From: Mucilaginibacter cryoferens
GTDB lineage: Bacteria > Bacteroidota > Bacteroidia > Sphingobacteriales > Sphingobacteriaceae
DNA length: 64,000 nucleotides
NCBI RefSeq assembly: GCF_014205845.1
Contig: NZ_JACHCR010000008.1
Span: forward strand, 185,423 to 249,422
Reading direction: 5' to 3'
Shown: positions 47,859 to 63,933 of the stretch, piece after piece
How positions within the stretch are numbered: the stretch's first letter is position 1
Layout of the letters: every line of letters begins with the position of its first letter
Translations under genes and position numbers: made by a program
The notes under the pieces: model-generated
The model's database searches: none
Told to the model about the DNA's origin: nothing
Seen by the model: only the letters and a program-made list of their open reading frames with translations

Positions 47859-47951
47859 TCATAAAACTATGTCATTGCTTCGTTTCTTATAATGGCATAC
47901 TTTCAAAGTATTGATTATCAGTGCGTATTTTTTAACACAACACCCTCGCCG

Positions 47952-48103: not shown

Positions 48104-48205
48104 CCGTCATTGCGAGGCACGAAGCAATCCCCGACCTACAGAGTAGCTGTGCAAATCCGCTCTGTAAGTAGGGGATTGCTTCGTCGTACCTCCTCGCAAT
48201 GACGG
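48104..48205. repeat. 102-bp inverted-repeat element (family B)
   Basis: It begins CCGTCATTGCGAGG and ends with the exact reverse complement CCTCGCAATGACGG. Inside, GAAGCAATCCCC pairs with GGGGATTGCTTC. A closely similar element in opposite orientation lies at 63834-63933. There is no ORF inside, so any mobility would need help in trans. Confidence 0.8.
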
Positions 48206-48419: not shown

Positions 48420-48609
48420 TTGATACAATTTTTGATTCATTACACATAGCAGTATTGTATAGCTGTTATGATGTTTTTTTAACTTTTTATACTCTTTATG
48501 TAGTGTATCTAATTGGTAATTAGGTTATTAAATGCGTGTAACATTTGTTGTATCAATTTTAACATATGTGTTACAATCGATTGTTCGCTATCCATAGATT
48601 TGGTATCAA
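48420..48609. promoter_or_regulatory. TTGATACAA-type sites upstream of the second susC
   Basis: TTGATACAA at 48420-48428 and its reverse complement TTGTATCAA at 48548-48556, both followed by ATTTT, with a looser TTGGTATCAA at 48600-48609. They could be operators for the HTCS or AraC regulator; no regulator is demonstrated. Confidence 0.35.
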
Positions 48610-48691: not shown

Positions 48692-51600
48692 ATGAGAGGA
48701 AAACTACACATCAAAAAGTTTGTGGCTTTTATCTGGATCAACTTAGCACTGTTGTTGGTAAGTATGTCTGGGTATGCCCAAAGCAAAATTACCGGTAAAG
48801 TTATCGGTGCCGACGACGGCTTGCCCATACCAGGTGTAACCGTTAAGGTAAAAGGTACCGCCATAGTTACCAGCACTAATACAGAAGGTGCTTATTCTGT
48901 GAGCGCAGGCAGCAATGCAACGTTGGTATTTAGCTTTATAGGTTATGCAAATCAGGAGGTAGCGGTTGGTACAGGTGCAACACTGAATGTAAAATTAGTT
49001 CCCGAAAATAAATCACTTAACGAGGTTGTTGTAATTGGCTACGGTAGTGCCAAACGCAGCGATGTTACAGGTGCCATAAGTTCAGTTAGTGCAGCTACCA
49101 TTGCCAAGGTACCCGTTACATCATTAGACCAGGCTTTACAAGGCCGCGCGGCTGGTGTACAGGTTACTAATAACGATGCTTCACCGGGCGGTAACGTTTC
49201 GGTAATAATAAGGGGTACAGGTAGCCCGGCAACTGGTGGCAACACACCTTTGTATGTTGTAGATGATTATCCTTTAAACGCGGGTGGTATCAACAATATT
49301 AATCCAAGTGACATCGCGTCAATGGAAGTATTGAAAGATGCTTCGGCAACTGCTATCTATGGTGTTAGGGCTGCCAACGGCGTAGTTTTAATAACCACTA
49401 AAAGCGGGAAAAAAGATGGTAATGCGGTAGTTGAATTTAACGCTTACAACGCTTTTCAAAGCAAACCGAGGCAATATGATTTGCTGAACGCCCAGCAGTT
49501 TGCCACTTTGGCCAATAACGTAGCTGCTAACGATCCAAACAAACATTTTACCACATTAGCCAACTGGGCTGATCCTGCTTCGCTAACCAATGCCGACTGG
49601 CAAAATGCTATCTACCGCACGGGTTTAACTCAAAATTACGACTTATCTATCCGCGGTGGTAGCGAGAAAGTTCAATCGAAAGTTGCGATAGGCTATTATG
49701 ACCAAAAAGGTACCGTTTATGCTTCCTTTTTTAAGAGGATCACGCTTGGAGCTAAATTAGATTATCAGCCTAAGAAATGGCTTAAATCAACCACTAATGC
49801 CAATTACTCTTATCAAAACTACAGCACACCTTTCGGTACAGGCAGCTTGGGCCTTATCAATCAATTGGTGCCAACGTTAGATGGTGGTAATAAATTAACC
49901 AGCCAGATAAAAGATGCTAACGGTAATTATGGTTTCTACAACCCTATATATACCTATGTTGCAAAAAACAGCAACCCTATTTATGACCTCGATCATAACC
50001 AATATAAAAACGTCAATAATTTTTTCAAGGCAAACTCACAGTTAGAAGCCACAATTTTTGATGGTCTTAAGCTTAAAACCAACGCAGGTATTACTTATAC
50101 AGGTTATAACGGCTCATATTTTCAACCTTCAGACAGCCGTAAAATTGATCAGTATGGCGCTGCTGCCGGTGCATCAGGCAACGCGTTGTTTTCTAAACAC
50201 ATGAACAGTACTTTCGACTGGTTGTGGGAAAATTACCTGTCGTACGATAAAACCTTTGGCGCACACACCATCAATTTTGTAGGTGGGGTATCTCAGCAGG
50301 AACGTGATTATAACAGCATGGGGGGGAGCGTAATTCCGCCAAACAACGTTATCAAAGATTTGAACCAGGGAACCAATCTTATACTTGATACATATGGTAA
50401 CGGCGAGATTAAACGTTCTTATGCTTCGCAATTTGCAAGGTTATCATATAACTATGCAAGTAAATATTACTTAACAGGTACGGTTAGAAGAGATGGCTCG
50501 TCGCAGTTTGCGCCAGGCCATCAATATGGTATATTTTACTCTAGTGCTTTAAACTGGAATGCCAAAAAAGAATCTTTTCTGGCCAATGTTGATTGGTTGT
50601 CTGGTCTTAAATTCAGAGGCAGCTATGGCGAATTGGGTAACCAGGCAGGTGTAGGCGATTTTACTTACCAGTCGTTATATACAGCCGGTTCTGCAGCAGC
50701 TACCAGTGGTAACCTGGGTTATGCTTTTGGTAAAATTGGCGGTAGTAATGGTGTTTACCAAGGTGGTATAGCTTCTTTCCAACCAGAAGATGATAACATT
50801 CGCTGGGAAACCGACTATGAAACTGATATAGGTACCGATATTTCATTTTTACATGGTGAACTAACCGTAACTGCCGATTACTTTAACAGAAGATCAAAAG
50901 ATTTCTTGTTAAATCAGTTGGTATCTGCGCAAACAGGCTATTTAAACTTACCAGGTAATACAGGCTCAATCGTTAATAAAGGCTGGGAATTTGCAGTAAG
51001 TTATAACCATGCTATTACCAGTGATTTGCGCATTGATTTGAGTTTAACCGGCTCATTCATTCAAAATAAACTTACCAGCTTAAAGTCTGGCAATCCATAT
51101 ATTGGTAACCTGGCAGCCGTGGCTTCTGGTACAAGTGGTTCAACGGCTATTACATTAAATGGCGACGGCTGGACCGATTTTACCCGTACATACATAGGCC
51201 AGCCTGTTGGCGAATTTTATGGATATAGATCACTTGGTATTATACAATCGCAGGCCCAGTTAGATGCTTTAAATAAAGCAGCGCAGGCAAAAGGTAACGC
51301 TTACTATTACAAGGCTACCACTGCGGTGGGCGACCGTTTATTTGCCGATGTAAATAATAGCGGCAGTGTAACTCCAGACGATCAGGTAGGCCTGGGCAGC
51401 GCTCAGCCAAAATTCTTCGGTGGTTTTAACTTAGGTGGAGGCTATAAAAATTGGGATTTTAACGCCTATTTCTACGGCGTTTATGGTAATAAGATATTAA
51501 ACTACCAGGAAAGTAACCTGGAGAGCTTTGCACTAAGAGGATCTGTAAGTATCGAAAACGTAAGTAAAGATTACTACAATAATTATTTTATACCTGGCGC

Positions 51601-51952
51601 AACAGCTGGTGCGGCACCTATACGTGCATCAAACCGTTATGCAGCTGTATACTATGATGATACCGATCACGGTAACCTTGTGCCATCAAGTGCCTGGATT
51701 GAAAACGGTAGTTTCCTGAAATTAAAAACCCTTACAGTTGGCTATACCTTACCAACCGATTTAGTTAAAAAACTTACACTAACCAAAGTAAGGATCTACG
51801 TATCATCACAAAATTTGTTCACCATTACCAAGTATACCGGTCTTGATCCGGAAATTGGTTCGCAAGGTGGCAGCCCAACCCAAAACGGTATTGATAACGG
51901 CACTTATCCATCATCAAGGTTTTACACCGTTGGCTTAAACGTAGTATTTTAA
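48692..51952 (+). CDS. SusC/RagA-family TonB-dependent outer-membrane transporter
   Basis: A 1086-residue protein with a signal peptide ending near MSGYAQ, a carboxypeptidase-regulatory-like domain (ITGKVIGADDGLPIPGVTVKVKGT), a TonB-box-like NEVVVIGYG, a plug (VPVTSLDQALQGRAAGVQV, ILKDASATAIYGVRAANGVVLITTK) and a barrel ending VGLNVVF. It imports an oligosaccharide with the SusD protein encoded 23 bp downstream and is probably controlled by the HTCS encoded upstream. Downstream genes suggest a glycoside handled by oxidation, though this is inference. Confidence 0.96.
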   Translation: MRGKLHIKKFVAFIWINLALLLVSMSGYAQSKITGKVIGADDGLPIPGVTVKVKGTAIVTSTNTEGAYSVSAGSNATLVFSFIGYANQEVAVGTGATLNVKLVPENKSLNEVVVIGYGSAKRSDVTGAISSVSAATIAKVPVTSLDQALQGRAAGVQVTNNDASPGGNVSVIIRGTGSPATGGNTPLYVVDDYPLNAGGINNINPSDIASMEVLKDASATAIYGVRAANGVVLITTKSGKKDGNAVVEFNAYNAFQSKPRQYDLLNAQQFATLANNVAANDPNKHFTTLANWADPASLTNADWQNAIYRTGLTQNYDLSIRGGSEKVQSKVAIGYYDQKGTVYASFFKRITLGAKLDYQPKKWLKSTTNANYSYQNYSTPFGTGSLGLINQLVPTLDGGNKLTSQIKDANGNYGFYNPIYTYVAKNSNPIYDLDHNQYKNVNNFFKANSQLEATIFDGLKLKTNAGITYTGYNGSYFQPSDSRKIDQYGAAAGASGNALFSKHMNSTFDWLWENYLSYDKTFGAHTINFVGGVSQQERDYNSMGGSVIPPNNVIKDLNQGTNLILDTYGNGEIKRSYASQFARLSYNYASKYYLTGTVRRDGSSQFAPGHQYGIFYSSALNWNAKKESFLANVDWLSGLKFRGSYGELGNQAGVGDFTYQSLYTAGSAAATSGNLGYAFGKIGGSNGVYQGGIASFQPEDDNIRWETDYETDIGTDISFLHGELTVTADYFNRRSKDFLLNQLVSAQTGYLNLPGNTGSIVNKGWEFAVSYNHAITSDLRIDLSLTGSFIQNKLTSLKSGNPYIGNLAAVASGTSGSTAITLNGDGWTDFTRTYIGQPVGEFYGYRSLGIIQSQAQLDALNKAAQAKGNAYYYKATTAVGDRLFADVNNSGSVTPDDQVGLGSAQPKFFGGFNLGGGYKNWDFNAYFYGVYGNKILNYQESNLESFALRGSVSIENVSKDYYNNYFIPGATAGAAPIRASNRYAAVYYDDTDHGNLVPSSAWIENGSFLKLKTLTVGYTLPTDLVKKLTLTKVRIYVSSQNLFTITKYTGLDPEIGSQGGSPTQNGIDNGTYPSSRFYTVGLNVVF

Positions 51953-51975
51953 TCGGCTACATAAAAATTAAAGAT

Positions 51976-53739
51976 ATGAAAATGAATAAAAAATATATAG
52001 CTCTTGTAGTAGTCCTGGCGGGTACGTTACTGATTCCGCTAAGCTGTAAAAAGGGTTTTTTAACCCAAACCAATTCCTATCAATCAACCGCCGGTGCAAC
52101 TTTTCAAAAATCGCAGGATGTTGTTGCTTTAGTAAACAGTATTTACGATGGTTACCAAAGCGCCGATCTGTTGAAGAAATCTATCTGGTACTATGCCAAT
52201 TTTACCACGCATGATTGGTTTAATGATGGTGGCGATATTGCCTGGAACAATTATACCATAAGCCCAACCTTTGGTGCGCTTTATGTTTTCTGGCAAAATG
52301 CTTATTTCGATATCATCAGGGCCAACTCGGCACTGGAGGTTATCGCGACAGCAAAAGCCAACGGTGTTGTTACCCCCGAATTAGGCGACCGTTTATTAGG
52401 AGAAGCTTACTTTTTAAGAGGTATGACCTATTATTACCTTGCAGGTAGCTTTGGTGGCGTGCCAATTGAATTAAAGTCTAATCCAAATGGTTTAGCCCCG
52501 AGAAATACGCAGACGGAAGTGTTTACCCAGGTAGTATCCGATATGAAACAGGCCGAAACCTTATTGCTATCAAAAACAACCTTACCCACTGCCGAATTGG
52601 GCAGGGCAACAAAAGGCGCGGCGTATGCTTATGAGGCTTCGGCGCAAATGTGGTTGGGCAAATATGCTGATGCGTTAACAGCATTTAACAATCCCGAGCT
52701 TACTGCCAACTATCACCTGATTCCTAAATTTGTAAATGTTCACGAATTTAGCAATCAAAACAACGACGAATCCCTTTTTGAAATTCAGTTTGATATCCAG
52801 GGTTCACAAAGCTGGGATGGCGGCTGGCAAAATGGTGGCGAGGTTGCATGGATAGATGACTTTAGCTGGCCACATGAAATAAGCGGTTTTGGTTACGATT
52901 ATGGTAACCCAGGGTTATCGTACTCTTACCAGGCTGGCGATACACGTAAATATGCAACCATTGTTGGGCCTGGCGATTCGTTGGTAAGCCCGGGAATTAT
53001 TGCCAAATGGGGTGGTATAAAAGGCTACCAGGTAACAATTGATGGTTTTAAAAATGGTACCAAAGACAATGCCGGCCAAACATACGGATCGTTTGTTGGT
53101 GATGATGGAAAGATCATCAATACCTGTGGTGCTGTAAGGCAACCATGGTATGGCGATGACCTTACCCGCTCTGGCTACTATTGCTCAAAAAAATGGCGCG
53201 ATCCAAACCTTACCGGTGCAAACGGAACATCAACCATATTTGGTTCTCAAAACCAGATATTGATGCGCTACGCCGAAGTATTGTTAAGCCGTGCCGAGTG
53301 TAAAATACGTACCGGTGATGTTGCTGGTGGTTTAGCCGATGTTAAATTGGTAAGAGACCGCGCCTTTGGTGGCTCGGCGCCGGCTGTTGTACAGGATGGA
53401 CTTACTTTTGATGGTAAAGCTACCCAGCCAATAACAGACCCTATGCAAATTGTATTAAGCGAATACCGGCACGAACTTACCGGCGAGTACTCGTTGTTTT
53501 ACCTGTTACGCAGGGCAGGCAAAAGTGCAAGCGGCGGAACTTATGCGCAACAGTTTATAAAAGCTAATTACGGTACCGATAATACGGTAGTTCCGCAACC
53601 TTACCCATACGGCCCAACTGCCGATGGTAAATTGCATGGTGTTTGGCGCACATCGCTGCCAGATGGGCACGATATATTGCCTATACCGCAACAAGCAAGA
53701 GGGCTTAACCCTAATTTAGTGCAAAACCCCGGTTATTAA
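51976..53739 (+). CDS. SusD/RagB-family nutrient-binding lipoprotein
   Basis: A 587-residue lipoprotein with lipobox Cys24 (PLSCKKG). It has SusD features: GEAYFLRGMTYYYLAGSFGGVPIE in the TPR-like half, LMRYAEVLLSRAECKIRTGD and a C-terminal LPIPQQARGLNPNLVQNPGY. It forms the lid and capture subunit of the SusC transporter. A strong terminator lies 60 bp after the stop, so later genes need another promoter or read-through. Confidence 0.95.
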   Translation: MKMNKKYIALVVVLAGTLLIPLSCKKGFLTQTNSYQSTAGATFQKSQDVVALVNSIYDGYQSADLLKKSIWYYANFTTHDWFNDGGDIAWNNYTISPTFGALYVFWQNAYFDIIRANSALEVIATAKANGVVTPELGDRLLGEAYFLRGMTYYYLAGSFGGVPIELKSNPNGLAPRNTQTEVFTQVVSDMKQAETLLLSKTTLPTAELGRATKGAAYAYEASAQMWLGKYADALTAFNNPELTANYHLIPKFVNVHEFSNQNNDESLFEIQFDIQGSQSWDGGWQNGGEVAWIDDFSWPHEISGFGYDYGNPGLSYSYQAGDTRKYATIVGPGDSLVSPGIIAKWGGIKGYQVTIDGFKNGTKDNAGQTYGSFVGDDGKIINTCGAVRQPWYGDDLTRSGYYCSKKWRDPNLTGANGTSTIFGSQNQILMRYAEVLLSRAECKIRTGDVAGGLADVKLVRDRAFGGSAPAVVQDGLTFDGKATQPITDPMQIVLSEYRHELTGEYSLFYLLRRAGKSASGGTYAQQFIKANYGTDNTVVPQPYPYGPTADGKLHGVWRTSLPDGHDILPIPQQARGLNPNLVQNPGY

Positions 53740-53798
53740 ACTAATGGGCTATTATTTAATGAAATGAGATTTGGTTATATAATTGGTTATCTTGTTTT

Positions 53799-53829
53799 GG
53801 CTTTCTCCCTGCGGGGAGAAAGCCTTTTT
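53799..53829 (+). terminator. Rho-independent terminator after the second susCD pair
   Basis: GGCTTTCTCCC pairs with GGGAGAAAGCC around a short TGCG loop and is followed by five T residues. Confidence 0.88.
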
Positions 53830-53932
53830 AAGTTTGAGCACCTCACACAAATGAATTTTTAAATATAGCAGTACATATATGCACAGCATCAAATTACAGT
53901 TTGATAAATTAATGATCGGCTGATCTCTTGTT

Positions 53933-55144
53933 ATGAAAAAAGTAATAGTAGTAACAGGTATTTGTGTGGCATTGTTGATTGTTGTTTATACTCAATTTAA
54001 TGGCAATACAGCCAAGGCCGATCCGCGAGGAGAGGACTATGCGGGGGCAATGGCTTGTGCCAAATGCCATAGTAAAGTTTACAATTCGTACCTGCATACT
54101 GCTCATTATATGGCGTCAACCCCGGCATCGGCAAACACGGTGCACGGCAGCTTTGCCAAAGGCTTTAATGTGTTTGCTATTGATAGTAATCAAAGAATAG
54201 TGATGGAAAAACGGGATAGCGGCCTATATCAAACTTACTACGTTAAAGGTAAGGCTAAGCAAAGCAACCGTTTTGATATTGTTTTTGGAGGAGTTAAAGG
54301 CGAAAGTTATTTGTATTGGAAGGGCAATCAGCTTCATCAGTTGCCATTATCTTATTTCAACCTGCAAAGTGAATGGTCAACAAGCCCGGGTTATAAATTT
54401 AGCTTTATCGATTTCAGATCTATAGGTAAACGCTGCCTGGAATGCCATGTTTCTTATATAGACGAGCTGCCGCAGCAACAGCTAAGCCGCGACGAGCAGT
54501 TTGATAAAAGCACGTTGGTTTACGGTATTGATTGCGAACGCTGCCATGGCCCCGGCGCGCAGCATGTAAGTTTTCAGACCAATAACCCAACCGTTAAAAC
54601 GGCGAGGTTTATAGCCCGTTATTCAACCTTAACCCGCGATCAAAAAATGGATATGTGCGCGGTATGCCATTCGGGCATCCATACGGCACTACTTAAATCA
54701 ACTTTTGCATTTATGCCCGGCGATACGCTTGCCAAATTTAAACTGCCCGAGTTTCAACATAGTTTAGATACCAGCCACCTGGATGTGCATGGTAAGCAAT
54801 TACAGCTGCTAAAAACCAGCAAATGCTACATGTATAGCAAAATGGATTGTGCAACCTGCCACGATACGCACCAGAATACCCGCGGTAACGATATTTTGTA
54901 TACGCAAAAATGCCTCAGTTGCCACAACAAGCCCAATCATGTTTATTGTAAAATGACAGATAAGCTAAGCGCCGATGTGCTTAAAACCAAGTGCATCAGC
55001 TGCCACATGCCGGAGTTAACAACAAACGTAATTTCGGTACTTGTTGCCGATAAGGCGCCGCCTGTAAGGTTTTTTGTGCATACGCATCATATAGCCATTT
55101 ACCCGCAGGAGGTTAAAAAAATATTGGCCTTTATCAACAAATAA
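53933..55144 (+). CDS. Seven-heme c-type cytochrome
   Basis: A 403-residue protein with a hydrophobic N-terminus (about 3-20), either a cleaved signal or an anchor. Seven CxxCH heme sites are visible at about residues 42, 168, 201, 242, 306, 327 and 354 (CAKCH, CLECH, CERCH, CAVCH, CATCH, CLSCH and CISCH). The long gap between the first and second sites and the later spacing suggest a cytochrome c554-like or related multiheme fold. It should carry electrons in the periplasm. The next gene follows at once, with neighbouring genes encoding a possible dehydrogenase and cytochrome. The electron donor and acceptor are unknown. Confidence 0.88.
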   Translation: MKKVIVVTGICVALLIVVYTQFNGNTAKADPRGEDYAGAMACAKCHSKVYNSYLHTAHYMASTPASANTVHGSFAKGFNVFAIDSNQRIVMEKRDSGLYQTYYVKGKAKQSNRFDIVFGGVKGESYLYWKGNQLHQLPLSYFNLQSEWSTSPGYKFSFIDFRSIGKRCLECHVSYIDELPQQQLSRDEQFDKSTLVYGIDCERCHGPGAQHVSFQTNNPTVKTARFIARYSTLTRDQKMDMCAVCHSGIHTALLKSTFAFMPGDTLAKFKLPEFQHSLDTSHLDVHGKQLQLLKTSKCYMYSKMDCATCHDTHQNTRGNDILYTQKCLSCHNKPNHVYCKMTDKLSADVLKTKCISCHMPELTTNVISVLVADKAPPVRFFVHTHHIAIYPQEVKKILAFINK

Positions 55145-55181
55145 TTAAGTGTATAGTATTAATTTCAGTATATATTCTTTT

Positions 55182-58100
55182 ATGAATAAGATCTACTTTT
55201 CGGCCCTGCTCTTGCTGTCGGTATGTTTGTGCGCTTGCAAAAAACATACCTTGTTTGAGCAAATTTCTTCGTCGCACTCGGGCATTCACTTCAATAACCA
55301 AATCATCGAAACCGATACTATAAATCCTATCGATCTCACCAATATTTACAACGGGGGCGGTGTTGGTGTAGGCGATTTTAATAACGATGGCTTGCAGGAT
55401 CTTTACTTTACGGGCAACCTGGTATCTAATCGCCTGTACCTCAATAAAGGTAATTTTAAGTTTGAAGATATTACCGATAAAGCCGGCGTAAGCGGCCTTG
55501 GCCGCTGGGGCCGTGGTGTTGCCGTTGTAGATATTAATAATGATGGGTTGATGGATATTTATGTATGCAATACCATCTACCCCGATTCTACCCGTCGCCG
55601 TAACATCCTTTACATAAACCAGGGGGTGGATAAAGATGGCATTCCGCATTTTAAAAACATGGCTAAGGAGTATGGTTTGGAACTTACCCAGCAATCAACC
55701 ATGGCCAGCTTTTTTGATTATGATAACGATGGCGACCTGGATATGTACCTCACCGTTAACACGGCGTCATCTGCCTATTACCCCAACGTTTTTGGCAAGG
55801 CCAGTCGCACAAGCAGCAGCAGCGCCGGTAAGCTGTATCGTAACGATTGGGACGAGAAACTGCACCATGCTGTATTTCATAACGTATCAGACCAGGCGGG
55901 TATTACTACCGAGGGCTTTGGCCACGGCGCCACAACGGTTGATATTAACGGCGATGGCTGGAAAGACATTTACGTATCTGACGATTTTGTATCGAGCAAT
56001 ATTTTATACATCAACAACCATAACGGCACTTTTACAGATAGATCCAAAGAATATTTTAAACATACATCATACAATGCCATGGGGCAGGATATTGTAGACA
56101 TCAACAACGATGGCCTTGCCGATGTGCTTGAACTGGATATGAACCCAGCCGATAATTACCGTAAAAAAATGATACTGGGAGCCAACAGCTACCAGATGTT
56201 TGAACTGTTTGATATGTTTAAAACGCAATACCAATACGTGCGCAACACGTTACAGGTAAACCAGGGGCCGCGTTTGGGGCAAAATGGCACTTTGGGCAGC
56301 CCTGCATTTAGCGAGGTTGGTTTTATGAGCGGCATTTCACAAACAGACTGGAGCTGGACACCACTGGTTACCGATTTTAATAACGACGGCTTTCGCGACC
56401 TGGTGGTAACCAATGGTTTCCCCAAGGATGTATCAGACCGCGATTTTATGACCTACCGCAAGGATGCCTTCGCGGCAGTACCCAAGAAAAAAGTACTGGA
56501 GCAGATTCCCGAAATTAAGATCCCCAACTACGCTTTTGAAAACAACGGCAACCTTACTTTTCAGGATGTAAGTAAAAGCTGGGGATTAAACATCCCATCG
56601 TTTTCTAACGGTGCTGTATATGTTGATCTGGATAATGATGGTACCATGGATATGGTGATCAACAATATTAACGATGAAGCATTGGTGTCCCGTAATACCT
56701 CCAGAGACGATAAAACCAAACTTAATGATACCCATTACCTGCAAATTAGCTTTAAAGGCGATAAGCAGAACATCAACGCCCTGGGTACTTTGGTTAATAT
56801 ATACTATGATAAAGGCAAACAGCAGGTTTATGAAAACGATCCGTACCGGGGATATTTATCGAGTGTACAAAACATCGCTCATTTTGGTTTGGGTAAGGTA
56901 AACAAGGTAGATTCGGTAGTGATAAAATGGCCGGGCGGCAAAAAGCAAAAACTGCTTAATGTAAAGGCCGATCAAAAACTAACCGTAAACATTGCCGACG
57001 CTAATGATAATTATACCAGCACACTGCCGGCAGTTTACCTCAAATCGTTGTTTAAAGAGGTTACAGATTCATTAGGGATTCATTATGTAAGTAAAGATGC
57101 CAATTTTATCGACTTTAATATCCAAAAGCTTTTACCACATAAACTATCAGAATATTGCCCGGCTTTGGCTGTTGGCGATGTAGATAACAACGGATTAGAC
57201 GATGTAGTGATTGGTGGTAACTCCAATTTTCCGGCACAGGTATTTTTACAGCAGCCCAACGGCAAATTTATACAGCGCAACTTGTTCAATAACAAACAGC
57301 AAAGCCAGGCAAAATATAAAGATGCAGGTCTGTTGCTGTTTGATGCCAATGGCGATGGCAAGCTGGATTTGTATGCTGCCAGTAGTGGTTACGAAACCGC
57401 CGCTGGTAGCCCCGAATACCAGGATAGGTTATACTTAAACGATGGTAAGGGCAATTTTACTTTAGCTACAGATGCCCTGCCCACAAACTTTACCAGTAAG
57501 CTGTGCGTACGTGCCTGCGATTATAATAAAGATGGTAAGCTGGATCTGTTTATATCTGGCAGGGTAGAACCCTGGAAATATCCGCAGCCGGTATCCAGCA
57601 TTATTTTGCGGAACGATAGCCACAACGGGCACGTTAAATTTACCGATGTTACCGCGCAGGTTGCCCCTGCATTGAAAAACGCAGGGCTGGTTTGCGACGC
57701 CCTGTTTACCGATTTTGATAACGATGGCTGGCCCGATCTGATCATGGCCGGCGAATGGATGCCCATAACTTTTCTTAAAAACGATCATGGTAAGTTTGTA
57801 AACATCACCTCAAAATCGGGCATCAGCGATAAGCTGGGCTGGTGGAATACCATAACCGGTGGCGATTTCAGGCATACCGGACGTACAGATTATATAGTGG
57901 GCAACCTTGGGCAAAACAGCCTGTTACAGGCCAGCGACCAGTACCCTATATACATCACTGCCAAAAACTTTGATGGCAGCGGTTACAGCGCTATTCCGTC
58001 TGTTTTTTTCCCCGATGTAAATGGTGATAAAAAAGAGTTTCCGCTGCATGGGAGGGAAGATCAGTTAAAGCAAATGATAAGCCTTAAAAAGAAGTTTACC

Positions 58101-58751
58101 AACTATAAATCGTTTGCCACGGCCACCATGACGGATGTACTTACGCCCGAGCAAATGAATGGTGCATTGCGATTAAAAGCCAACCTGCTAAAATCATGCT
58201 TTTTGCGTAACGATGGCAACGGCAAATTCGCGCTCATTCCGTTACCCATTGAGGCCCAGGTATCGGTACTTAACGGTATGGAAACCGGCGATTTCGACGG
58301 CGATGGCAACCTGGATGTGGTGATGAACGGTAACGATTATGGCGCTGATGCATCAACCGGCAGGTACGATGCCCTTAACGGCTTAATGTTAAAAGGCGAT
58401 GGCAAAGGCGGGTTTAAGCCGATGAGCATTTTGCAAAGCGGTATCTATATCCCTGGCAATGGCAAGGCACTGGTAAAACTGCGCGATAAAAGCGGGCACA
58501 TCCTGCTGGCAGCCAGCCAAAACAGGGATTCGCTAAAGGTATTTAAGCTAAACGCGAAGGTGAAGATAATAGCCGCCGCAGCGCAGGATGCTTACGCTGT
58601 GATAAAATACAACGATGGCCGGATAGCCAAACAGGAGTTTTACTACGGTAACTCTTTCCTGTCGCAATCTGCCCGTTTTATGCAGGTAGATGATAGCATG
58701 AAAAGCGTAATTATTTTTGATAATAAGGGTAAGCAGCAGGTGGTTAAATAG
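55182..58751 (+). CDS. CRTAC1-like lipoprotein with FG-GAP/VCBS repeats and ASPIC/UnbV domain
   Basis: A 1189-residue lipoprotein from the ATG at 55182 with lipobox Cys19 (LCACKKH); a GTG at 55149 is an unlikely start. At least seven FG-GAP/VCBS calcium-loop repeats occur in the first half, of the type DINNDGLMDIYV, YDNDGDLDMYL, DINGDGWKDIYV and DFNNDGFRDLVV. An ASPIC/UnbV segment (about 540-605: ALGTLVNIYYDKGK ... VIKWPGGKKQKL) is followed by a second FG-GAP set. It probably forms one or two calcium-stabilised beta-propellers on the cell surface. It lies 37 bp after the cytochrome gene. Role unknown; binding or electron-transfer scaffolding is possible. Confidence 0.85.
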   Translation: MNKIYFSALLLLSVCLCACKKHTLFEQISSSHSGIHFNNQIIETDTINPIDLTNIYNGGGVGVGDFNNDGLQDLYFTGNLVSNRLYLNKGNFKFEDITDKAGVSGLGRWGRGVAVVDINNDGLMDIYVCNTIYPDSTRRRNILYINQGVDKDGIPHFKNMAKEYGLELTQQSTMASFFDYDNDGDLDMYLTVNTASSAYYPNVFGKASRTSSSSAGKLYRNDWDEKLHHAVFHNVSDQAGITTEGFGHGATTVDINGDGWKDIYVSDDFVSSNILYINNHNGTFTDRSKEYFKHTSYNAMGQDIVDINNDGLADVLELDMNPADNYRKKMILGANSYQMFELFDMFKTQYQYVRNTLQVNQGPRLGQNGTLGSPAFSEVGFMSGISQTDWSWTPLVTDFNNDGFRDLVVTNGFPKDVSDRDFMTYRKDAFAAVPKKKVLEQIPEIKIPNYAFENNGNLTFQDVSKSWGLNIPSFSNGAVYVDLDNDGTMDMVINNINDEALVSRNTSRDDKTKLNDTHYLQISFKGDKQNINALGTLVNIYYDKGKQQVYENDPYRGYLSSVQNIAHFGLGKVNKVDSVVIKWPGGKKQKLLNVKADQKLTVNIADANDNYTSTLPAVYLKSLFKEVTDSLGIHYVSKDANFIDFNIQKLLPHKLSEYCPALAVGDVDNNGLDDVVIGGNSNFPAQVFLQQPNGKFIQRNLFNNKQQSQAKYKDAGLLLFDANGDGKLDLYAASSGYETAAGSPEYQDRLYLNDGKGNFTLATDALPTNFTSKLCVRACDYNKDGKLDLFISGRVEPWKYPQPVSSIILRNDSHNGHVKFTDVTAQVAPALKNAGLVCDALFTDFDNDGWPDLIMAGEWMPITFLKNDHGKFVNITSKSGISDKLGWWNTITGGDFRHTGRTDYIVGNLGQNSLLQASDQYPIYITAKNFDGSGYSAIPSVFFPDVNGDKKEFPLHGREDQLKQMISLKKKFTNYKSFATATMTDVLTPEQMNGALRLKANLLKSCFLRNDGNGKFALIPLPIEAQVSVLNGMETGDFDGDGNLDVVMNGNDYGADASTGRYDALNGLMLKGDGKGGFKPMSILQSGIYIPGNGKALVKLRDKSGHILLAASQNRDSLKVFKLNAKVKIIAAAAQDAYAVIKYNDGRIAKQEFYYGNSFLSQSARFMQVDDSMKSVIIFDNKGKQQVVK

Positions 58752-58800
58752 CTGGATGGCGAAAGAGAAATGACAAAAGTTTGGGGATTGGTGTAGATCC

Positions 58801-58834
58801 CAGACTTCCGAAGTTTTTAAACTTCGGAAGTCTG
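58801..58834. repeat. Perfect 34-bp hairpin (family C)
   Basis: CAGACTTCCGAAGTTT and its exact reverse complement are separated by two bases. It sits 50 bp after the CRTAC1-like gene and lacks a T-run. It may be a dispersed palindrome or an RNA-stabilising hairpin. Confidence 0.85.
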
Positions 58835-58849
58835 TCGCCGGATTACCAT

Positions 58850-58890
58850 TCTCCCTTCAGAGGCTCAGGATTTTAAAATTTGAAGGGAGA
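58850..58890. repeat. Inverted repeat with TCTCCCTTCA arms
   Basis: TCTCCCTTCA (58850-58859) and its reverse complement TGAAGGGAGA (58881-58890) flank 21 bases. The CCCTTCAGAG start is shared with the direct repeats near 47836 and 48291, suggesting a related element. Confidence 0.6.
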
Positions 58891-59046
58891 TTGATAAAAG
58901 TCGCTTACAGCGATCCAACACCCAAGCCAATTTTCTATCATTTTTTGTTAAAATAAAATACGCAATCGATTGTACAAATAATTAAATTGCACGGTATAAG
59001 GTTACAAGCCTTTTATCGATATAAACCATATTATAATTTAAACATA

Positions 59047-60885
59047 ATGTATTGTATTAAGCATCCTCCCATTAGTTTTGGTGGCAAAAGATCTCTGGTG
59101 TTGCTGCTGTTGCTGCTTGGCGGCAACCGGTTGATGGCGCAAAACACGGTGCCGCTAAATGATCTTTCTTTTTTTCAGGAACCCGCATCAAACTGGAAAC
59201 TGGCCTCGGGCGTACAGGCCGATTTAGATAAAGACGAAGTTTTAACCACCAAAGGTGGCAACGGCATCCTCATTAATTTGCCCGGTAAAAGCGGCGCGAA
59301 AGATTTGTATAGCAAAACCAGCTATGGCGATGTAGACCTGGAGCTGGATTATATGATGGCTAAAGCATCAAACTCGGGTATTTATTTACAGGGCCGGTAT
59401 GAAATTCAGCTGCTGGATAGCTGGGGTGTTGTTAACCCCAAATCGGGCGATAATGCAGGCATTTACGAGCGTTGGGACGATAGCAAACCCGATGGGCAGC
59501 AAGGTTATGACGGCCATGCGCCAAGGCAAAACGCCAGCAGGGCCCCCGGTTTGTGGCAGCATATAAAAATTTCGTTCCAGGCACCGCGTTTTGATGCACA
59601 GGGCAAAAAAATAAGCAATGCCAAAGTGATATATGTTTGGCTAAACGGTGTTTTGGTACAGGATAATGTAGAGCTTGCCGGGCCAACCCGCGGTGCTATG
59701 GATAGTAAAGAAACAACTGCCGGTCCGCTGCGCATTCAGGGCGATCATGGTGCCGTTGCGTTCCGTAATATCAGCATTACTGGTTTTGATAAAGCGCCCC
59801 CTATATTATCAAACCTAAAATACGCGGTTTATAAAGGCGGTAGCACTACCGAGGCCGATTACAAAAAACTAAAAGCCGAGGCGGAAGGTGCATCAACCAT
59901 TTTGTCATCAAACCAGGGTAAGCTTGCTAATGATTTCTTTCTTCGTTACACAGGTACCATCAAAGTAACCGAGGCTGGCGAATACACCTTTAAGTTGAGC
60001 GTACCTGGTGGTAAGGGCGCATTACACATTGGCGGTGCCGATGCGGTACCGGTAGCCGATTTTAGAGGCACAGGTAAAATACAATTACAACCCGGCGAAC
60101 ACCCTTTTGAACTGTTTTACGCCAAAACAATTGATTGGGCCAAACCCGCTTTGGGGTTAACTGTATCCGGTCCCGGCATCCGCGAGTATTTACTGAGCGA
60201 TGCCAACGTAAGTAACAATGATCCTGTTGATCCTATCCTCATCAACGCTACCGCCAATACTATTTTGCGCAGTTTTTCTGATCTGCCGGGAGGCATCCGT
60301 GTAACCCACGGCGTAAACGTGGGCAGCCCCGATCTGGTACATTATACCTACGATATGGATAAAGGGATGATTGTACAGCTATGGCGTGGCGGCTTTTTAG
60401 ATGCTACACCCATGTGGCACGATAGGGGCGACGGCTCTTCGCGCGTGGCTGGTTCTGTACAATATTTAGGTAAACCGGTACCGGCGATACAAAAACTGGC
60501 CAATACACAGGCGACTTGGGCGGCAGATACCGCCGGCACGGGTTACCGCCCTAAAGGCTATGTTTTAAATACCAATGATGAACCAACGTTTAAATACCTT
60601 ATTTATGGCACCATGGTTAATGATGCCAGTACAGTGATAACAGGCGGCCACGGCATCCACCGCGAAGTAACACTGCAAAATCCGGTTGATGGTTTGTTTG
60701 CGCAGCTGGCTACGGGTACCAATATCGAAGACCTTGGCAACGGCCTGTATACAGTTGATGATAAATCCTACTACATCCGCATAGAGGATGCAGCAGGAGC
60801 CAAACCCATTCTGCGCAACGCGGGCGGCAAGCAGGAGCTCATCGTACCTATCCAAAAGAAATTAACCTATTCTATTATCTTTTAA
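59047..60885 (+). CDS. DUF1080 (3-keto-glycoside hydrolase-like) protein with PA14-like domain
   Basis: A 612-residue protein from the ATG at 59047; an upstream TTG is unlikely. The signal peptide ends near GGNRLMAQ. Residues about 30-240 form a DUF1080 domain (NSGIYLQGRYEIQLLDSWG, APGLWQHIKISFQAPRFD, VWLNGVLVQDNVELAGPT, GPLRIQGDHGAVAFRNI), a fold assigned to 3-keto-disaccharide hydrolases. A PA14-like beta domain (about 290-380) follows. The last 230 residues (from about 385) I do not recognise; they contain FLDATPMWHDRGDGSSRVAG. Likely a periplasmic enzyme acting on oxidised glycosides. A clear Shine-Dalgarno at its stop serves the next gene. Confidence 0.8.
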   Translation: MYCIKHPPISFGGKRSLVLLLLLLGGNRLMAQNTVPLNDLSFFQEPASNWKLASGVQADLDKDEVLTTKGGNGILINLPGKSGAKDLYSKTSYGDVDLELDYMMAKASNSGIYLQGRYEIQLLDSWGVVNPKSGDNAGIYERWDDSKPDGQQGYDGHAPRQNASRAPGLWQHIKISFQAPRFDAQGKKISNAKVIYVWLNGVLVQDNVELAGPTRGAMDSKETTAGPLRIQGDHGAVAFRNISITGFDKAPPILSNLKYAVYKGGSTTEADYKKLKAEAEGASTILSSNQGKLANDFFLRYTGTIKVTEAGEYTFKLSVPGGKGALHIGGADAVPVADFRGTGKIQLQPGEHPFELFYAKTIDWAKPALGLTVSGPGIREYLLSDANVSNNDPVDPILINATANTILRSFSDLPGGIRVTHGVNVGSPDLVHYTYDMDKGMIVQLWRGGFLDATPMWHDRGDGSSRVAGSVQYLGKPVPAIQKLANTQATWAADTAGTGYRPKGYVLNTNDEPTFKYLIYGTMVNDASTVITGGHGIHREVTLQNPVDGLFAQLATGTNIEDLGNGLYTVDDKSYYIRIEDAAGAKPILRNAGGKQELIVPIQKKLTYSIIF

Positions 60886-60889
60886 GGAG
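60884..60889 (+). promoter_or_regulatory. Shine-Dalgarno site of the dehydrogenase-cytochrome gene
   Basis: AAGGAG overlaps the upstream TAA stop and lies eight bases before the ATG at 60898. Such a clear site is uncommon among neighbouring genes and supports the chosen start and translational coupling. Confidence 0.7.
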
Positions 60890-60897
60890 CCTTCATC

Positions 60898-62865
60898 ATG
60901 ACTTATACACTAAAACAAATGATAAACAGGGCCACGTTATTTACTGCCATATTAGCTGCCTCGCTGTTAAGTAATACGCAAAAAACATACGCCCAGGCCG
61001 AATCGCCGAAAGAGGACGATTTTTTCAAGATCATGAAAGTACCCGCGCCCGAGGGTACCATACTGGAAGTTGGTGGCTTGTGCACCTTGCCTAATGGCAC
61101 ACTGGCGGTAACCACCCGCAGGGGTGATATTTTTATGGTGGAAAACCCTACCAGTCAGCATCCATATTTCAGGAAATTTGCATCGGGCCTGCACGAAGTT
61201 TTGGGCGCGGCCTGGAAAGACGGCGCTTTATACGTAGTACAACGCGGCGAGCTTACCAAACTGCAGGATACCAATATGGATGGCAAGGCCGATGTGTTTG
61301 AAACCATATACGCCTGGCCCCTGTCTGGTAATTACCACGAATACAGCTTCGGCCCCAAACTGGCACCCGATGGCTCCTTTTTTGTAACGCTAAACCTGGG
61401 TTTCCCGCCAGATTGGTGGCACCCTAAAAGCTTTGTGCCTTATAGGGGCTGGGCTTTAAATATTAAGGAGGACGGCACCGTTACCCCCTGGGCGGCGGGT
61501 TTCCGCTCGCCATGCGGTATCAGTATGATAGACGGCGAATTGTGGTACAGCGATAACCAGGGCGACTGGGTAGGATCGGGAAGTATTATGCAGATCAAAA
61601 AAGGCGCTTTTATGGGCCATCCATCCAGTTTGGTTTGGACCAACCTGCCAAATTCTCCCTTAAAGCTAACGCCCGAACAATTCTTTGCCAAAAATAACCC
61701 AAGGATAGAATTTGATAAAAGCGGACAGCCTTTTAAACCCCAGGATATCCCCAACGAAAAATTCAGGACCGAGTTTGAAGTTAAAAAAGAGATCCCCGAA
61801 TTAACGCTGCCGGTAGTTTGGCTGCCGCATGGTATTTTGGGTATTTCCAACTCCGAAATTGTAAAAATACCCGAAGATACTTTTGGTCCGTTTGCAGGCC
61901 AGTTGCTGGTATGCGATCAGGGGCAAAGTATGCTCGACCGTATCTTTTTAGAAAAAGTGAACGGCGAATACCAGGGTGCTGCCTGGGCGTTCCGCAGTGG
62001 TTTTCAGTCGGGTGTCATCAGGCTGGCCTGGTTACCAGATGGTTCACTGGCCGCGGGCGAAACTAACCGCGGCTGGGGTTCGGCAGGCGAATCTACCATG
62101 GGGTTACAGCGTTTGGTATGGAATAATAAGGTGCCTTTTGAAATGCGCGCCATACGTGCTATGCCCGATGGTTTTGAAATAGAATTTACCAAACCGGTTG
62201 ATAAAAAGGTAGCCGAAGATATCGCGTCGTACTCGGTTGAAAGCTTTATTTATAAATACCAGGCCGTGTATGGCAGTCCGCCCGAGAATACCGAGAAATG
62301 CCCTATTGTTGGCGTTAAAGTATCTGAGGATGGTTTAAAAGCCAGGCTTATTGTAAACAACCTGCGCAGGTACTACATACATACCATTACGCTGGATGGC
62401 GTACGCGATAAGGAAAACTATTTTAACCTGGTGCACCCAACTGCCTACTACACCCTAAACAATATCCCCGAAGGGCAAAAATTGTCTATGACCGGGGTGA
62501 GCACCCTTAACACCGCCAAAACAGTAAAAGCTGGCTTACCTGCCGCCCCCAAAAAGGGAGCAACAGCAAAAGCTACCGCTGCAAAATTATTGGGGGCAGT
62601 AAACGCCGTGCCAACCTATGATGAGGTAAAACCATTGCTGATGAAAAATACCTGCCTATCTTGCCATAACGCCAATAAGCGCCAGGTGGGGCCGGCCTAT
62701 GTAGATGTGGCTAAACGCAAATACAGTGTTAACGAACTGGTACAGCTGATTCATAACCCCAAGCCAGAACATTGGCCCGATTATTCGACACCGATGCCGC
62801 CAATGCCGCAGGTGCCTTTAGCCGAGGCCCGTAAAATAGCGCTCTGGATAAAATCGCTCAAATAG
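60898..62865 (+). CDS. Beta-propeller dehydrogenase-like protein fused to cytochrome c
   Basis: A 655-residue protein with a signal peptide ending near KTYAQ. Residues about 40-430 are a propeller resembling the glucose/sorbosone or PQQ-type membrane-bound dehydrogenase family (VGGLCTLPNGTLAVTTRRGDIFMVE, GLHEVLGAAWKDGALYVVQRGELTKL, WAAGFRSPCGISMIDGELWYSDNQGDW). A small beta domain follows. The C-terminus is a class-I cytochrome c with CLSCH (Cys586-His590) and a likely axial Met in MPPMP. It could oxidise a sugar and pass electrons to the fused heme. The cofactor is not proven; key PQQ ligands were not checked. It lies between two DUF1080 genes. Confidence 0.82.
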   Translation: MTYTLKQMINRATLFTAILAASLLSNTQKTYAQAESPKEDDFFKIMKVPAPEGTILEVGGLCTLPNGTLAVTTRRGDIFMVENPTSQHPYFRKFASGLHEVLGAAWKDGALYVVQRGELTKLQDTNMDGKADVFETIYAWPLSGNYHEYSFGPKLAPDGSFFVTLNLGFPPDWWHPKSFVPYRGWALNIKEDGTVTPWAAGFRSPCGISMIDGELWYSDNQGDWVGSGSIMQIKKGAFMGHPSSLVWTNLPNSPLKLTPEQFFAKNNPRIEFDKSGQPFKPQDIPNEKFRTEFEVKKEIPELTLPVVWLPHGILGISNSEIVKIPEDTFGPFAGQLLVCDQGQSMLDRIFLEKVNGEYQGAAWAFRSGFQSGVIRLAWLPDGSLAAGETNRGWGSAGESTMGLQRLVWNNKVPFEMRAIRAMPDGFEIEFTKPVDKKVAEDIASYSVESFIYKYQAVYGSPPENTEKCPIVGVKVSEDGLKARLIVNNLRRYYIHTITLDGVRDKENYFNLVHPTAYYTLNNIPEGQKLSMTGVSTLNTAKTVKAGLPAAPKKGATAKATAAKLLGAVNAVPTYDEVKPLLMKNTCLSCHNANKRQVGPAYVDVAKRKYSVNELVQLIHNPKPEHWPDYSTPMPPMPQVPLAEARKIALWIKSLK

Positions 62866-62908
62866 TTAACAAGCTTTTTATTTACACTCATCATTTAAAT
62901 AATTAAAT

Positions 62909-63679
62909 ATGAAATTTCACATATTATTAGTGGCTTTAATAGCCGGATCGGCAATGGCTGCAAACGCGCAGCAAAAAGGAAAGCCCGAGGATACCGAGTA
63001 CTGGACACCCGTACCGGCCATAGTAACACCCGGTGAAAAAATGGGCCAGGCACCATCTGATGCTATCGTTTTATTCGACGGTAAAAATTTGGATGAATGG
63101 GTAGCCCTCAACGATTCTACCTCTACCCATAAATGGAAGGTTGCCGATAACGCCATCACGGTTGATAAAAGTGCAGGCGACATCCGCACCAAAAGAAAAT
63201 TTACAGATTTTCAGCTGCATATAGAGTACCGCATTCCATCAAACATAACAGGCAGTAGCCAGGCACGCGGTAACAGCGGTATTTTTTTGGCTGCTTTGCC
63301 CTGGGGCGCTGGAGGTTACGAGTTACAGGTTTTGGATAATTACAAAAATCCAACCTATGTAAATGGTCAGGCTGGCAGCTTATACAAACAATCGCCTCCA
63401 TTGGTAAACGCCTGCCGCAAACCCGGCGAATGGCAATATTACGATGTAATTTGGACAGCCCCGCGTTTTAACGAGGACGGCACCCTAAAATCGGCTGCCC
63501 GCGCAACGGTTTTACATAACGGTGTACTGGTGCAAAACAACACCTCGTTGAAAGGCGATACTCCCTACATCGGTCAGCCCGAGTATCGTAAACACGGTGC
63601 CGAACCCATCAAACTACAAGCCCACGGCGATAAAAGCGAACCGATAAGCTACCGCAACATTTGGGTGCGGGAGCTTTAA
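62909..63679 (+). CDS. DUF1080 (3-keto-glycoside hydrolase-like) protein
   Basis: A 256-residue secreted protein with a signal peptide ending near AANAQ. It is essentially one DUF1080 domain: AIVLFDGKNLDEWV, WKVADNAITVDKSAGDIRTKRKFTDFQLHIEYRIP, GNSGIFLAALPWGAGGYELQVLDNYKNPTYVNGQAGSLYKQSPPLVNACRKPGEWQYYDVIWTAPRF and a closing ISYRNIWVREL. Family members cleave or process 3-keto-sugars. It is a simpler paralogue of the gene at 59047 and likely co-transcribed with the dehydrogenase gene 43 bp upstream. A weak terminator follows. Confidence 0.87.
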   Translation: MKFHILLVALIAGSAMAANAQQKGKPEDTEYWTPVPAIVTPGEKMGQAPSDAIVLFDGKNLDEWVALNDSTSTHKWKVADNAITVDKSAGDIRTKRKFTDFQLHIEYRIPSNITGSSQARGNSGIFLAALPWGAGGYELQVLDNYKNPTYVNGQAGSLYKQSPPLVNACRKPGEWQYYDVIWTAPRFNEDGTLKSAARATVLHNGVLVQNNTSLKGDTPYIGQPEYRKHGAEPIKLQAHGDKSEPISYRNIWVREL

Positions 63680-63738: not shown

Positions 63739-63833
63739 TTTTATGTGGCTGATGGTCAAAAAATAACACTATCTCACTGAATGATAGCGCGGAGTTAATC
63801 CGGAAAAAACTGTAATTACATCTTAAAAAAGAT

Positions 63834-63933
63834 CGTCATTGCGAGGAGGTACGACGAAGCAATCCCCAAAATACAGGGCCGATTTGCACAGCTACTCTGT
63901 AAGTAGGGGATTGCTTCGTGCCTTATAATGACG
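63834..63933. repeat. Family-B inverted-repeat element, inverted copy
   Basis: CGTCATTGCGAGGAGGTACG, then GAAGCAATCCCC on the left and GGGGATTGCTTCGTGCC with AATGACG on the right. It matches the reverse complement of 48104-48205 closely, including the central CACAGCTACTCTGTA stretch. Confidence 0.8.

What the first reader, a model, noticed from the sequence alone, without database searches (positions are those of the whole stretch)
48692..63679. SusCD locus paired with cytochromes and keto-glycoside enzymes instead of classical hydrolases
Behind an HTCS-controlled SusCD pair come a seven-heme cytochrome, a CRTAC1-like surface lipoprotein, a DUF1080-PA14 protein, a propeller dehydrogenase fused to cytochrome c, and another DUF1080 protein. 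No typical polysaccharide glycoside hydrolase is seen. DUF1080 proteins are linked in the literature to 3-keto-glycoside processing, which needs prior sugar oxidation. The set could be an oxidation-first glycan or glycoside pathway with electrons leaving through multiheme cytochrome. A terminator after susD argues for two transcripts.
Basis: partly seen in the sequence, partly recalled or inferred. Interest (0 to 1): 0.75.

Follow-up and report, generated by a model that had tools for sequence, protein, structure and literature searches.

The report
Xylose-regulon-linked redox sugar-uptake locus
In a soil bacterium, a sugar-import gene pair sits beside sugar-oxidising and keto-sugar-cleaving type enzymes that carry the same predicted switch site as the xylose genes, which suggests a testable oxidative route for plant sugars; the multi-heme cytochrome beside it is an add-on found next to these genes in only a few relatives.

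Summary
Neighbourhood comparison splits the locus. (1) A core pair, the DUF1080-PA14 protein plus the propeller-cytochrome c protein, is adjacent in 40 of 40 loci examined; what is constant in the first protein is an unnamed C-terminal domain, while DUF1080 and PA14 are optional. (2) SusC-SusD lies upstream in 14 of 20 genus loci, CRTAC1 in 13 of 20, but SusCD in only 1 of 20 loci of the wider sample. (3) The seven-heme cytochrome lies near the propeller gene in 5 of 120 genus genomes; elsewhere it sits mostly in ordinary SusCD loci, often beside beta-glucan hydrolases. New here: one LacI-type palindrome lies in the promoters of both susC and the DUF1080-propeller operon; its core is kept at the operon in 18 of 20 genus loci, and the full site is in front of xylulokinase in 19 of 19 genomes tested. 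This predicts membership of a xylose/xylan regulon. The window's DUF1080 protein is 66% identical to one in a LacA/LacC/Gfo-Idh cluster of this genome. Oxidation-first catabolism stays plausible, unproven: no LacA/LacC gene is in the locus.

The parts
43586..47740 (+). Hybrid two-component system (Reg_prop, Y_Y_Y, HisKA, HATPase, response regulator, AraC HTH)
   Evidence: An HTCS-like gene is upstream of susC in G103, G020, G056, G004, G043, G025, G010; none was seen in the roughly 5-9 kb held upstream of susC in G071, G017, G116, G068, G031
48573..48584 (.). LacI-type palindrome ACAATCGATTGT, 108-119 bases upstream of the susC start codon
   Evidence: exact 12-mer upstream of susC in 9 of 14 cassette susC genes, one more (G020) with one mismatch, none exact in G004, G043, G025, G010; 1 of 47 susC genes in the 80 cytochrome loci, and that one (L100) is itself a cassette locus
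48692..51952 (+). SusC/RagA TonB-dependent transporter
   Evidence: TIGR04056 821.9 bits, cut-off 368.25
51976..53739 (+). SusD-like protein
   Evidence: PF07980, PF14322
53799..53824 (+). Terminator-like hairpin GGCTTTCTCCCTGCGGGGAGAAAGCC + T-run
   Evidence: most GC pairs of the 26 terminator-like sites found; shuffles give 19.4 +/- 4.0, so the scan as a whole is weak
53933..55144 (+). Seven-heme c-type cytochrome, N-terminally anchored (inferred); lineage-specific addition
   Evidence: 7 CXXCH in 79 of 80 homologous loci, 6 in one; AlphaFold model too poor to use (pLDDT 47.5)
55182..58751 (+). CRTAC1-like FG-GAP + ASPIC/UnbV protein, lipoprotein-like start by eye (strict lipobox pattern not matched)
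58962..58973 (.). LacI-type palindrome GCAATCGATTGT, 74-85 bases upstream of the ATG at 59047
   Evidence: core AATCGATT at this gene in 18 of 20 genus loci: 16 strictly upstream of the ORF as called, 2 within its first 40 bases; exact 12-mer within 200 bases upstream in 11 of 19 relatives
59047..60885 (+). DUF1080 (3keto-disac_hyd) + PA14 + conserved C-terminal domain (about residues 390-612)
60898..62865 (+). Beta-propeller (PQQ sugar dehydrogenase fold) + C-terminal cytochrome c551/552-like domain
62909..63679 (+). Stand-alone DUF1080 protein with a signal-peptide-like start (by eye)
   Evidence: closest solved structure 4qhz (E 6.4e-86); 66% identical to the DUF1080 of the C22 cluster

Best explanation
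This is a two-transcript, one-regulon glycan-use locus of Mucilaginibacter. A SusCD importer and a CRTAC1-like (probably glycan-binding) protein bring a xylose-containing oligosaccharide or glycoside into the periplasm. There the DUF1080-PA14-CTD protein and the propeller-cytochrome c protein work as a pair: the propeller oxidises a sugar carbon, probably with PQQ or a similar cofactor, and passes the electrons to its own cytochrome c domain and on to respiration. The DUF1080 domains cleave oxidised (3-keto) glycosides, which may be made partly by the LacA/LacC-type enzymes encoded elsewhere in the genome. Transcription of both units is released when a LacI-family regulator that also controls xylose isomerase and xylulokinase senses a xylose-type inducer. 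The seven-heme cytochrome is an optional redox accessory between susD and CRTAC1 in one small lineage. Shown: gene content, conserved adjacency, fold, conserved palindrome. Inferred: the regulator's identity, inducer, substrate, cofactor, oxidised carbon, and the pairing of the two proteins in one complex.
Against: No GMC or Gluconate_2-dh3 gene in the locus; PF13618 hits in this genome are only on C4 and C22. PF07995 (GSDH) does not match the propeller even at E 10, and the profile alignment to a GSDH-family protein does not line up a catalytic histidine. PQQ synthesis genes were not looked for. The exact 12-mer is at the operon in 11 of 19 relatives only. The xylulokinase scores below the XylB cut-off (309.6 vs 380.25). 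Two LacI genes carry the site, so which one acts here is open. Outside Mucilaginibacter the core was seen in 2 of 18 loci and SusCD upstream in 1 of 20 of the wider sample, although the pair persists: xylose control and SusCD cannot define the pair's chemistry. In Pedobacter none of ten DUF1080 genes had a lactose phenotype (PMC9007349; redundancy suggested there).
Confidence: 0.43

Rival explanations
1. Ordinary polysaccharide utilisation with hydrolytic DUF1080 enzymes: the DUF1080 proteins hydrolyse an unoxidised glycan like GH16-type enzymes, and the propeller protein is a periplasmic aldose (C1) dehydrogenase that harvests electrons from released reducing sugars. No 3-keto step takes place.
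For: A DUF1080 protein of Thermogutta is described as an endo-glucanase/xanthanase (PMC10881899, passages). The nearest folds are glucose and aldose sugar dehydrogenases. No LacA/LacC gene in the locus.
Against: The window's 256-aa DUF1080 is 66% identical to one encoded in a cluster with LacA/LacC-like and Gfo/Idh genes; DUF1080 in Caulobacter and BT2157 are linked to 3-keto sugars (PMC9007349, passages).
Confidence: 0.3
2. One reading: one oxidation-first pathway in which the seven-heme cytochrome is the dedicated electron exit, possibly at the cell surface.
For: In this genome and four relatives the cytochrome lies between susD and CRTAC1, co-directional with the cassette.
Against: Cytochrome and propeller lie within 10 kb in 5 of 120 genomes; in 8 of the 20 genus loci SusCD-CRTAC1-DUF1080-propeller is complete without it; 2 of 80 named cytochrome loci contain the propeller; the palindrome is upstream of 0 of 80 cytochrome genes; lipobox-like motif in 1 of 79.
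Confidence: 0.1
3. Two unrelated neighbours: SusCD (with or without cytochrome and CRTAC1) forms one system and the DUF1080-propeller operon another, brought together by chance.
For: Each half occurs without the other (6 of 20 genus loci and 19 of 20 wider loci have no SusC-SusD upstream; cytochrome loci); a terminator-like hairpin and separate palindromes.
Against: SusCD precedes the operon in 14 of 20 genus loci, and the same palindrome is in front of susC in 9 of these 14.
Confidence: 0.17

Closest known systems
LacABC + DUF1080 3-keto-glycoside pathway (Caulobacter; Price et al. 2022, PMC9007349, passages read)
   Same: DUF1080 proteins with signal-peptide-like starts; oxidation outside the cytoplasm is the shared idea; this genome has LacC-GMC-DUF1080 genes on C4 and LacC/GMC/Gfo-Idh/TIM-barrel/DUF1080 genes on C22.
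   Different: The window locus has no GMC (LacA) or Gluconate_2-dh3 (LacC) gene; in their place is a propeller-cytochrome c protein with a conserved partner domain, and a SusCD importer.
PQQ-dependent soluble glucose/aldose sugar dehydrogenases (sGDH, Asd; AA12)
   Same: Propeller fold.
   Different: No PF07995 match; fused cytochrome c551/552-like domain; cofactor residues not established.
Large DUF6797 propeller proteins of other Bacteroidota (and, by recall, of PVC bacteria)
   Same: The propeller aligns to the C-terminal half of four DUF6797 proteins of 928-1017 aa over 432 columns (hhalign probability 99.95; BLASTP 23-25%).
   Different: Here the cytochrome domain is C-terminal (N-terminal in those four, by eye) and the partner domain is in a separate gene; relation of that domain to DUF6797 is only a weak lead (E 0.015; hhalign probability 1.2%, P 0.046).
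HTCS-controlled SusCD polysaccharide utilisation loci
   Same: SusC, SusD, neighbouring HTCS.
   Different: No classical glycoside hydrolase within the locus in this genome; additional LacI-type palindrome.

Membership tests
LacABC-type 3-keto-glycoside system | GMC oxidoreductase (LacA) in the locus | tested here: not met
   no PF00732/PF05199 hit among the 8 proteins scanned (the contig ends at the locus, so genes further downstream cannot be checked)
LacABC-type 3-keto-glycoside system | LacC (PF13618) in the locus | tested here: not met
   three hits in the genome, on C4 and C22, none on C8
LacABC-type 3-keto-glycoside system | DUF1080 protein | tested here: met
   PF06439 at 62909-63679 and 59047-60885
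LacABC-type 3-keto-glycoside system | activity on 3-keto glycosides | not testable with these tools
   needs enzyme assay
PQQ sugar dehydrogenase (sGDH/Asd/AA12) | six-bladed propeller of this fold | tested here: met
   model pLDDT 67.6, so moderate confidence
PQQ sugar dehydrogenase (sGDH/Asd/AA12) | GSDH sequence signature PF07995 | tested here: not met
   (E up to 10); a GSDH protein of this genome scores 124.1 bits
PQQ sugar dehydrogenase (sGDH/Asd/AA12) | PQQ/Ca-binding and catalytic residues | tested here: inconclusive
   H147 invariant in the 24-row A2 and at least 90% in the 12-row A3; R203 invariant in both. The profile alignment to the GSDH-family protein places R203 at its GNRNP arginine but does not place H147 at a histidine; which residues matter is recalled
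PQQ sugar dehydrogenase (sGDH/Asd/AA12) | PQQ supply (pqq genes) | not tested
MtrC/OmcA-type surface electron conduit | match to the decaheme families over their cut-offs | tested here: not met
   43.8 vs 192.2, 21.2 vs 209.3, 53.6 vs 325 bits; the Pfam MtrC/MtrF domain II/IV model does match over its cut-off (36.2 vs 30)
MtrC/OmcA-type surface electron conduit | lipoprotein signal | tested here: inconclusive
   lipobox-like pattern in 1 of 79 homologues; the pattern is strict and also misses the window's SusD and CRTAC1
Classical Bacteroidota PUL | SusC + SusD + regulator | tested here: met
Classical Bacteroidota PUL | classical glycoside hydrolase or lyase in the locus | tested here: not met
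   none among the proteins of 48692-63679; GH43 in relatives G103, G020
LacI xylose/xylan regulon of Mucilaginibacter (predicted) | same palindrome upstream of xylB in the same genomes | tested here: met
   19 of 21 xylB loci, 19 of 19 genomes
LacI xylose/xylan regulon of Mucilaginibacter (predicted) | binding of the regulator | not testable with these tools
   needs EMSA or mutant

The most novel reading that the evidence does not exclude
A xylose-regulated, oxidation-first glycan pathway in which a two-protein propeller-cytochrome c dehydrogenase (with a new, unnamed partner domain) replaces LacABC as the periplasmic sugar oxidase feeding DUF1080 keto-glycosidases; and, separately, a seven-heme cytochrome family that is a recurrent redox accessory of SusCD glycan loci, including beta-glucan loci.
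Probability: 0.22. Interest if true: 0.8.

Novelty: new variant of a known kind. Interest (0 to 1): 0.55.

Why it matters
If right, it adds a new oxidase type to the little-known route by which bacteria break glycosides after oxidising a sugar carbon, names the inducer class to try first (xylose, xylan, xyloglucan), and gives a two-gene target for biochemistry. The seven-heme cytochrome in many beta-glucan loci raises a question that gene deletion can test: why would use of a glucan need electron transfer?

Tried and rejected
Structure of the cytochrome: AlphaFold2 gave pLDDT 47.5, so no fold search was run with it. PDB by sequence found no useful relative (best E 6.9e-5 over 53 residues). C-terminal domain as DUF6797: weak only, kept as a lead. 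Regulon test with UxuA and the ThuA-GSDH protein: the exact 12-mer occurs in 9 of 30 UxuA-type loci (anywhere in the locus) and in 2 of 30 ThuA-GSDH loci (30 of the 31 and 38 matches had loci), so only xylB shows near-general conservation and the other own-genome sites are weaker evidence. The reversed-pattern control gave 8 genome matches against 20 for the palindrome, so some of the 20 will be chance; of the 18 sites in the regions, seven lie inside a called ORF: two in ORFs of about 100 aa upstream of susC, three within 75 bases of a called start, two deeper in GH3-like genes.

Papers: searches listed no paper that, by title or abstract start, describes this locus, the cytochrome inside SusCD loci, or a LacI xylose operator of Mucilaginibacter; this covers only the held open-access library. 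PMC9007349, PMC10881899, PMC12125979 and PMC12175321: passages only; PMC10628242: abstract and outline only. PMC12125979 deals mainly with an E. coli-type XylR (AraC DNA-binding domain) in Vibrio; one passage says that beta-1,4-xylan systems of Bacteroides, Prevotella and Xanthomonas are regulated by LacI-family or HTCS regulators, which agrees with finding both here. PMC12175321 mentions SusCD and multiheme cytochromes apart, in Woeseiaceae.

Counts and selections: the wider sample is 20 loci from 20 of the 66 genomes with a hit, chosen by me for spread; two of the 20 (G127, G019) are same-genus genomes with a more distant copy. The genus sample is 20 loci from 19 of 41 genomes with a hit (G043 twice). 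The xylB/UxuA/ThuA-GSDH tests used those 19 genomes. L059 repeats the window and was dropped. Gene names in the maps come from BLAST to seed proteins, with Pfam checks on a few. Related genomes are not independent, so k-of-n counts overstate the evidence.
Full report
Setting. The window is G000:C8:185423-249422 of a 6.95 Mb genome in 64 contigs, and its right end is the end of the contig. Genus assignment is therefore Mucilaginibacter, by inference.

The observation. All seven genes and the HTCS are in the stated places. The cytochrome has seven CXXCH motifs. The propeller protein carries a C-terminal cytochrome c551/552-like domain. A hairpin with 11 pairs and a T-run follows susD at 53799-53824.

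The cytochrome is not part of the core. In 120 genus genomes the cytochrome has a match in 76 (E <= 1e-10) and the propeller protein in 41 (E <= 1e-30), but the two lie within 10 kb of each other in only 5 (G000, G103, G020, G056, G102; positions). In the 20 genus loci of the propeller gene that I mapped (window plus 19, recounted) SusC-SusD lies upstream in 14, CRTAC1 in 13, the cytochrome in 5, the last DUF1080 directly downstream in 17, and the DUF1080-PA14 gene directly upstream in all 20. Eight loci have SusCD, CRTAC1, DUF1080-PA14 and propeller without the cytochrome. In 80 named loci of cytochrome relatives (the best 80 of 574 confirmed, itself a capped list) 63 contain a SusD-like gene in the stretch shown, 45 have it within 5 kb, 41 have a GH30-, GH16- or GH5-like neighbour within five genes, 18 have SusD and CRTAC1, 17 have no SusD-like gene in view, and 2 have the propeller. 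Pfam confirms GH30, GH16 and GH5 for one such locus. Two orders recur: susC-susD-GH16-GH30-(GH3)-GH30-cytochrome-GH5 in 9 loci and susC-susD-GH30-GH5-cytochrome in 15 Pedobacter-type loci, so the 80 are far from independent. I did not measure how often a SusD-like gene falls in a random stretch of this size; the fixed gene order is the better evidence.

Where the cytochrome sits in the cell. Its N terminus is a predicted helix (residues 2-24, in a model that is otherwise poor) and 1 of 79 homologues has a strict lipobox-like motif. I infer a periplasm-facing anchored protein. The lipobox test is strict: it also misses SusD and CRTAC1, whose starts look like those of lipoproteins by eye. A Pfam MtrC/MtrF domain model matches just over its cut-off (36.2 vs 30 bits), the decaheme family models do not.

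The core pair. Across 40 loci (20 genus; 20 of a wider sample, drawn from the 66 of 201 order-level genomes with hits) the partner gene is directly upstream in 40. It has three architectures: DUF1080+PA14+C-terminal domain in 19, DUF1080+C-terminal domain in 15, C-terminal domain alone in 6. So the constant partner of the propeller is the C-terminal domain (window residues about 390-612). In the wider sample SusC-SusD is upstream in 1 of 20 and a DUF1080 gene downstream in 5 of 20: the SusCD link is a trait of Mucilaginibacter, not of the pair. Other Bacteroidota carry single proteins of 928-1017 aa with a DUF6797 domain before a propeller (4 of 148 genomes with DUF6797) that aligns with this one over 432 columns at hhalign probability 99.95. 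The C-terminal domain's own similarity to DUF6797 is weak (E 0.015; hhalign probability 1.2%), so the idea that the two genes are a split form of such proteins is a lead, not a result.

DUF1080 and 3-keto chemistry. The stand-alone DUF1080 protein is 66% identical over its whole length to the DUF1080 protein in a cluster on C22 that holds two Gluconate_2-dh3 (LacC) genes, two GMC-like genes, two Gfo/Idh/MocA genes and several TIM-barrel-like genes (the second GMC gene and most TIM-barrel genes were identified from the start of the sequence only). A small operon on C4 is LacC-GMC-DUF1080. PMC9007349 (passages) reports that LacABC and a DUF1080 gene are needed for lactose use in Caulobacter; in Pedobacter the dehydrogenase mattered, but none of ten DUF1080 genes showed a lactose phenotype, which the authors put down to possible redundancy. 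In the window itself there is no LacA or LacC. So either the propeller makes the oxidised sugar, or the LacA/LacC enzymes do so in trans, or this DUF1080 pair is hydrolytic (PMC10881899 reports one such member).

A shared operator. Reading the promoters showed the same palindrome upstream of susC (48573-48584) and of the DUF1080-PA14 gene (58962-58973). These are the only two exact matches of RCAATCGATTGY in the 64 kb (three matches at up to one mismatch; 1 of 100 shuffles reached three). In the genus loci the core AATCGATT is at the DUF1080-PA14 gene in 18 of 20 (16 strictly upstream of the ORF as called); the exact 12-mer within 200 bases upstream is present in 11 of the 19 relatives. Exact matches upstream of the cassette's susC are found in 9 of 14 loci, with one more at one mismatch; in G103 and G020 the exact site also lies 28 bases before the HTCS gene. 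Other genes: 3 of 396 in the genus regions and 1 of 907 in the cytochrome loci; susC genes of the cytochrome loci: 1 of 47, itself a cassette locus; upstream of the cytochrome: 0 of 80.

What the operator belongs to. Of 20 sites in the whole genome (reversed-pattern control 8) one lies between a LacI-family gene and a xylulokinase-like gene followed by xylose isomerase and a sodium/solute symporter. In 19 genomes with the pair the site is in front of the xylulokinase gene in 19 of 21 loci, at least once in each genome. Further own-genome sites precede GH67 alpha-glucuronidase, an acetylesterase-like gene, UxuA and a second LacI gene, GH11, four susC genes, an HTCS gene, FecI/FecR-like genes, a GMC oxidoreductase and a ThuA-GSDH-PKD-cytochrome c protein. 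The last is kept in few relatives (2 of 30 loci), and seven of 18 sites lie inside called ORFs, so not every site need be real. The prediction is a xylose/xylan LacI regulon that includes this cassette in Mucilaginibacter. Outside the genus the core was seen at the pair in 2 of 18 loci, so the link to xylose is a genus-level one.

HTCS or LacI. In G071, G017, G116, G068 and G031 no HTCS was seen in the roughly 5-9 kb held upstream of susC, and the exact operator is present at susC; in G004, G043, G025 and G010 an HTCS is present and the exact operator is not (the 8-base core is, in G043, 98 bases before susC); in the window's small lineage both occur. This looks like turnover of regulators around one cassette.

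Verdict. I rate it a new variant of a known kind.

Noticed in passing
L107, L112, L118, L147, L157, L178 and others: Seven-heme cytochrome genes embedded in SusCD loci with GH30, GH16, GH5 and GH3-like genes in Sphingobacteriaceae and Chitinophagaceae: why a beta-glucan locus keeps a cytochrome is unexplained.
   Followed up: partly
L125, L128, L142, L148: Another arrangement: cytochrome convergent with SusC-SusD-CRTAC1, a PAP2-superfamily protein (haloperoxidase-like by eye) and an FG-GAP protein with a CXXCH motif (Pfam run for L125 only).
   Followed up: partly
G000:C22:13000-30000 (L200, L201) and G000:C4:37800-41100 (L199): LacC/GMC/Gfo-Idh/TIM-barrel/DUF1080 cluster and a LacC-GMC-DUF1080 operon: probable 3-keto-glycoside pathways of this genome.
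   Followed up: partly
G000:C24:116603 (L238) and G000:C27:1425 (L240): The same palindrome precedes a GMC oxidoreductase with a neighbouring ThuA gene, and a ThuA-GSDH-PKD-cytochrome c fusion.
   Followed up: partly
window 47940-48200 and 63820-63920: Near-copies of a short dispersed repeat (CATTGCGAGG...GAAGCAATCCCC type) flank the locus on both sides; seen by eye.
   Followed up: no
window 26336-31076: GH43 and GH106 (alpha-L-rhamnosidase) genes upstream, apparently part of another glycan locus.
   Followed up: no
L067 (G116): The CRTAC1 gene appears split into ORFs of 961 and 233 codons, possibly a frameshift.
   Followed up: no
L327 (G004), ORF of 457 codons between HTCS and susC: Looks like a GH27-type hydrolase by eye; not scanned with Pfam.
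   Followed up: no
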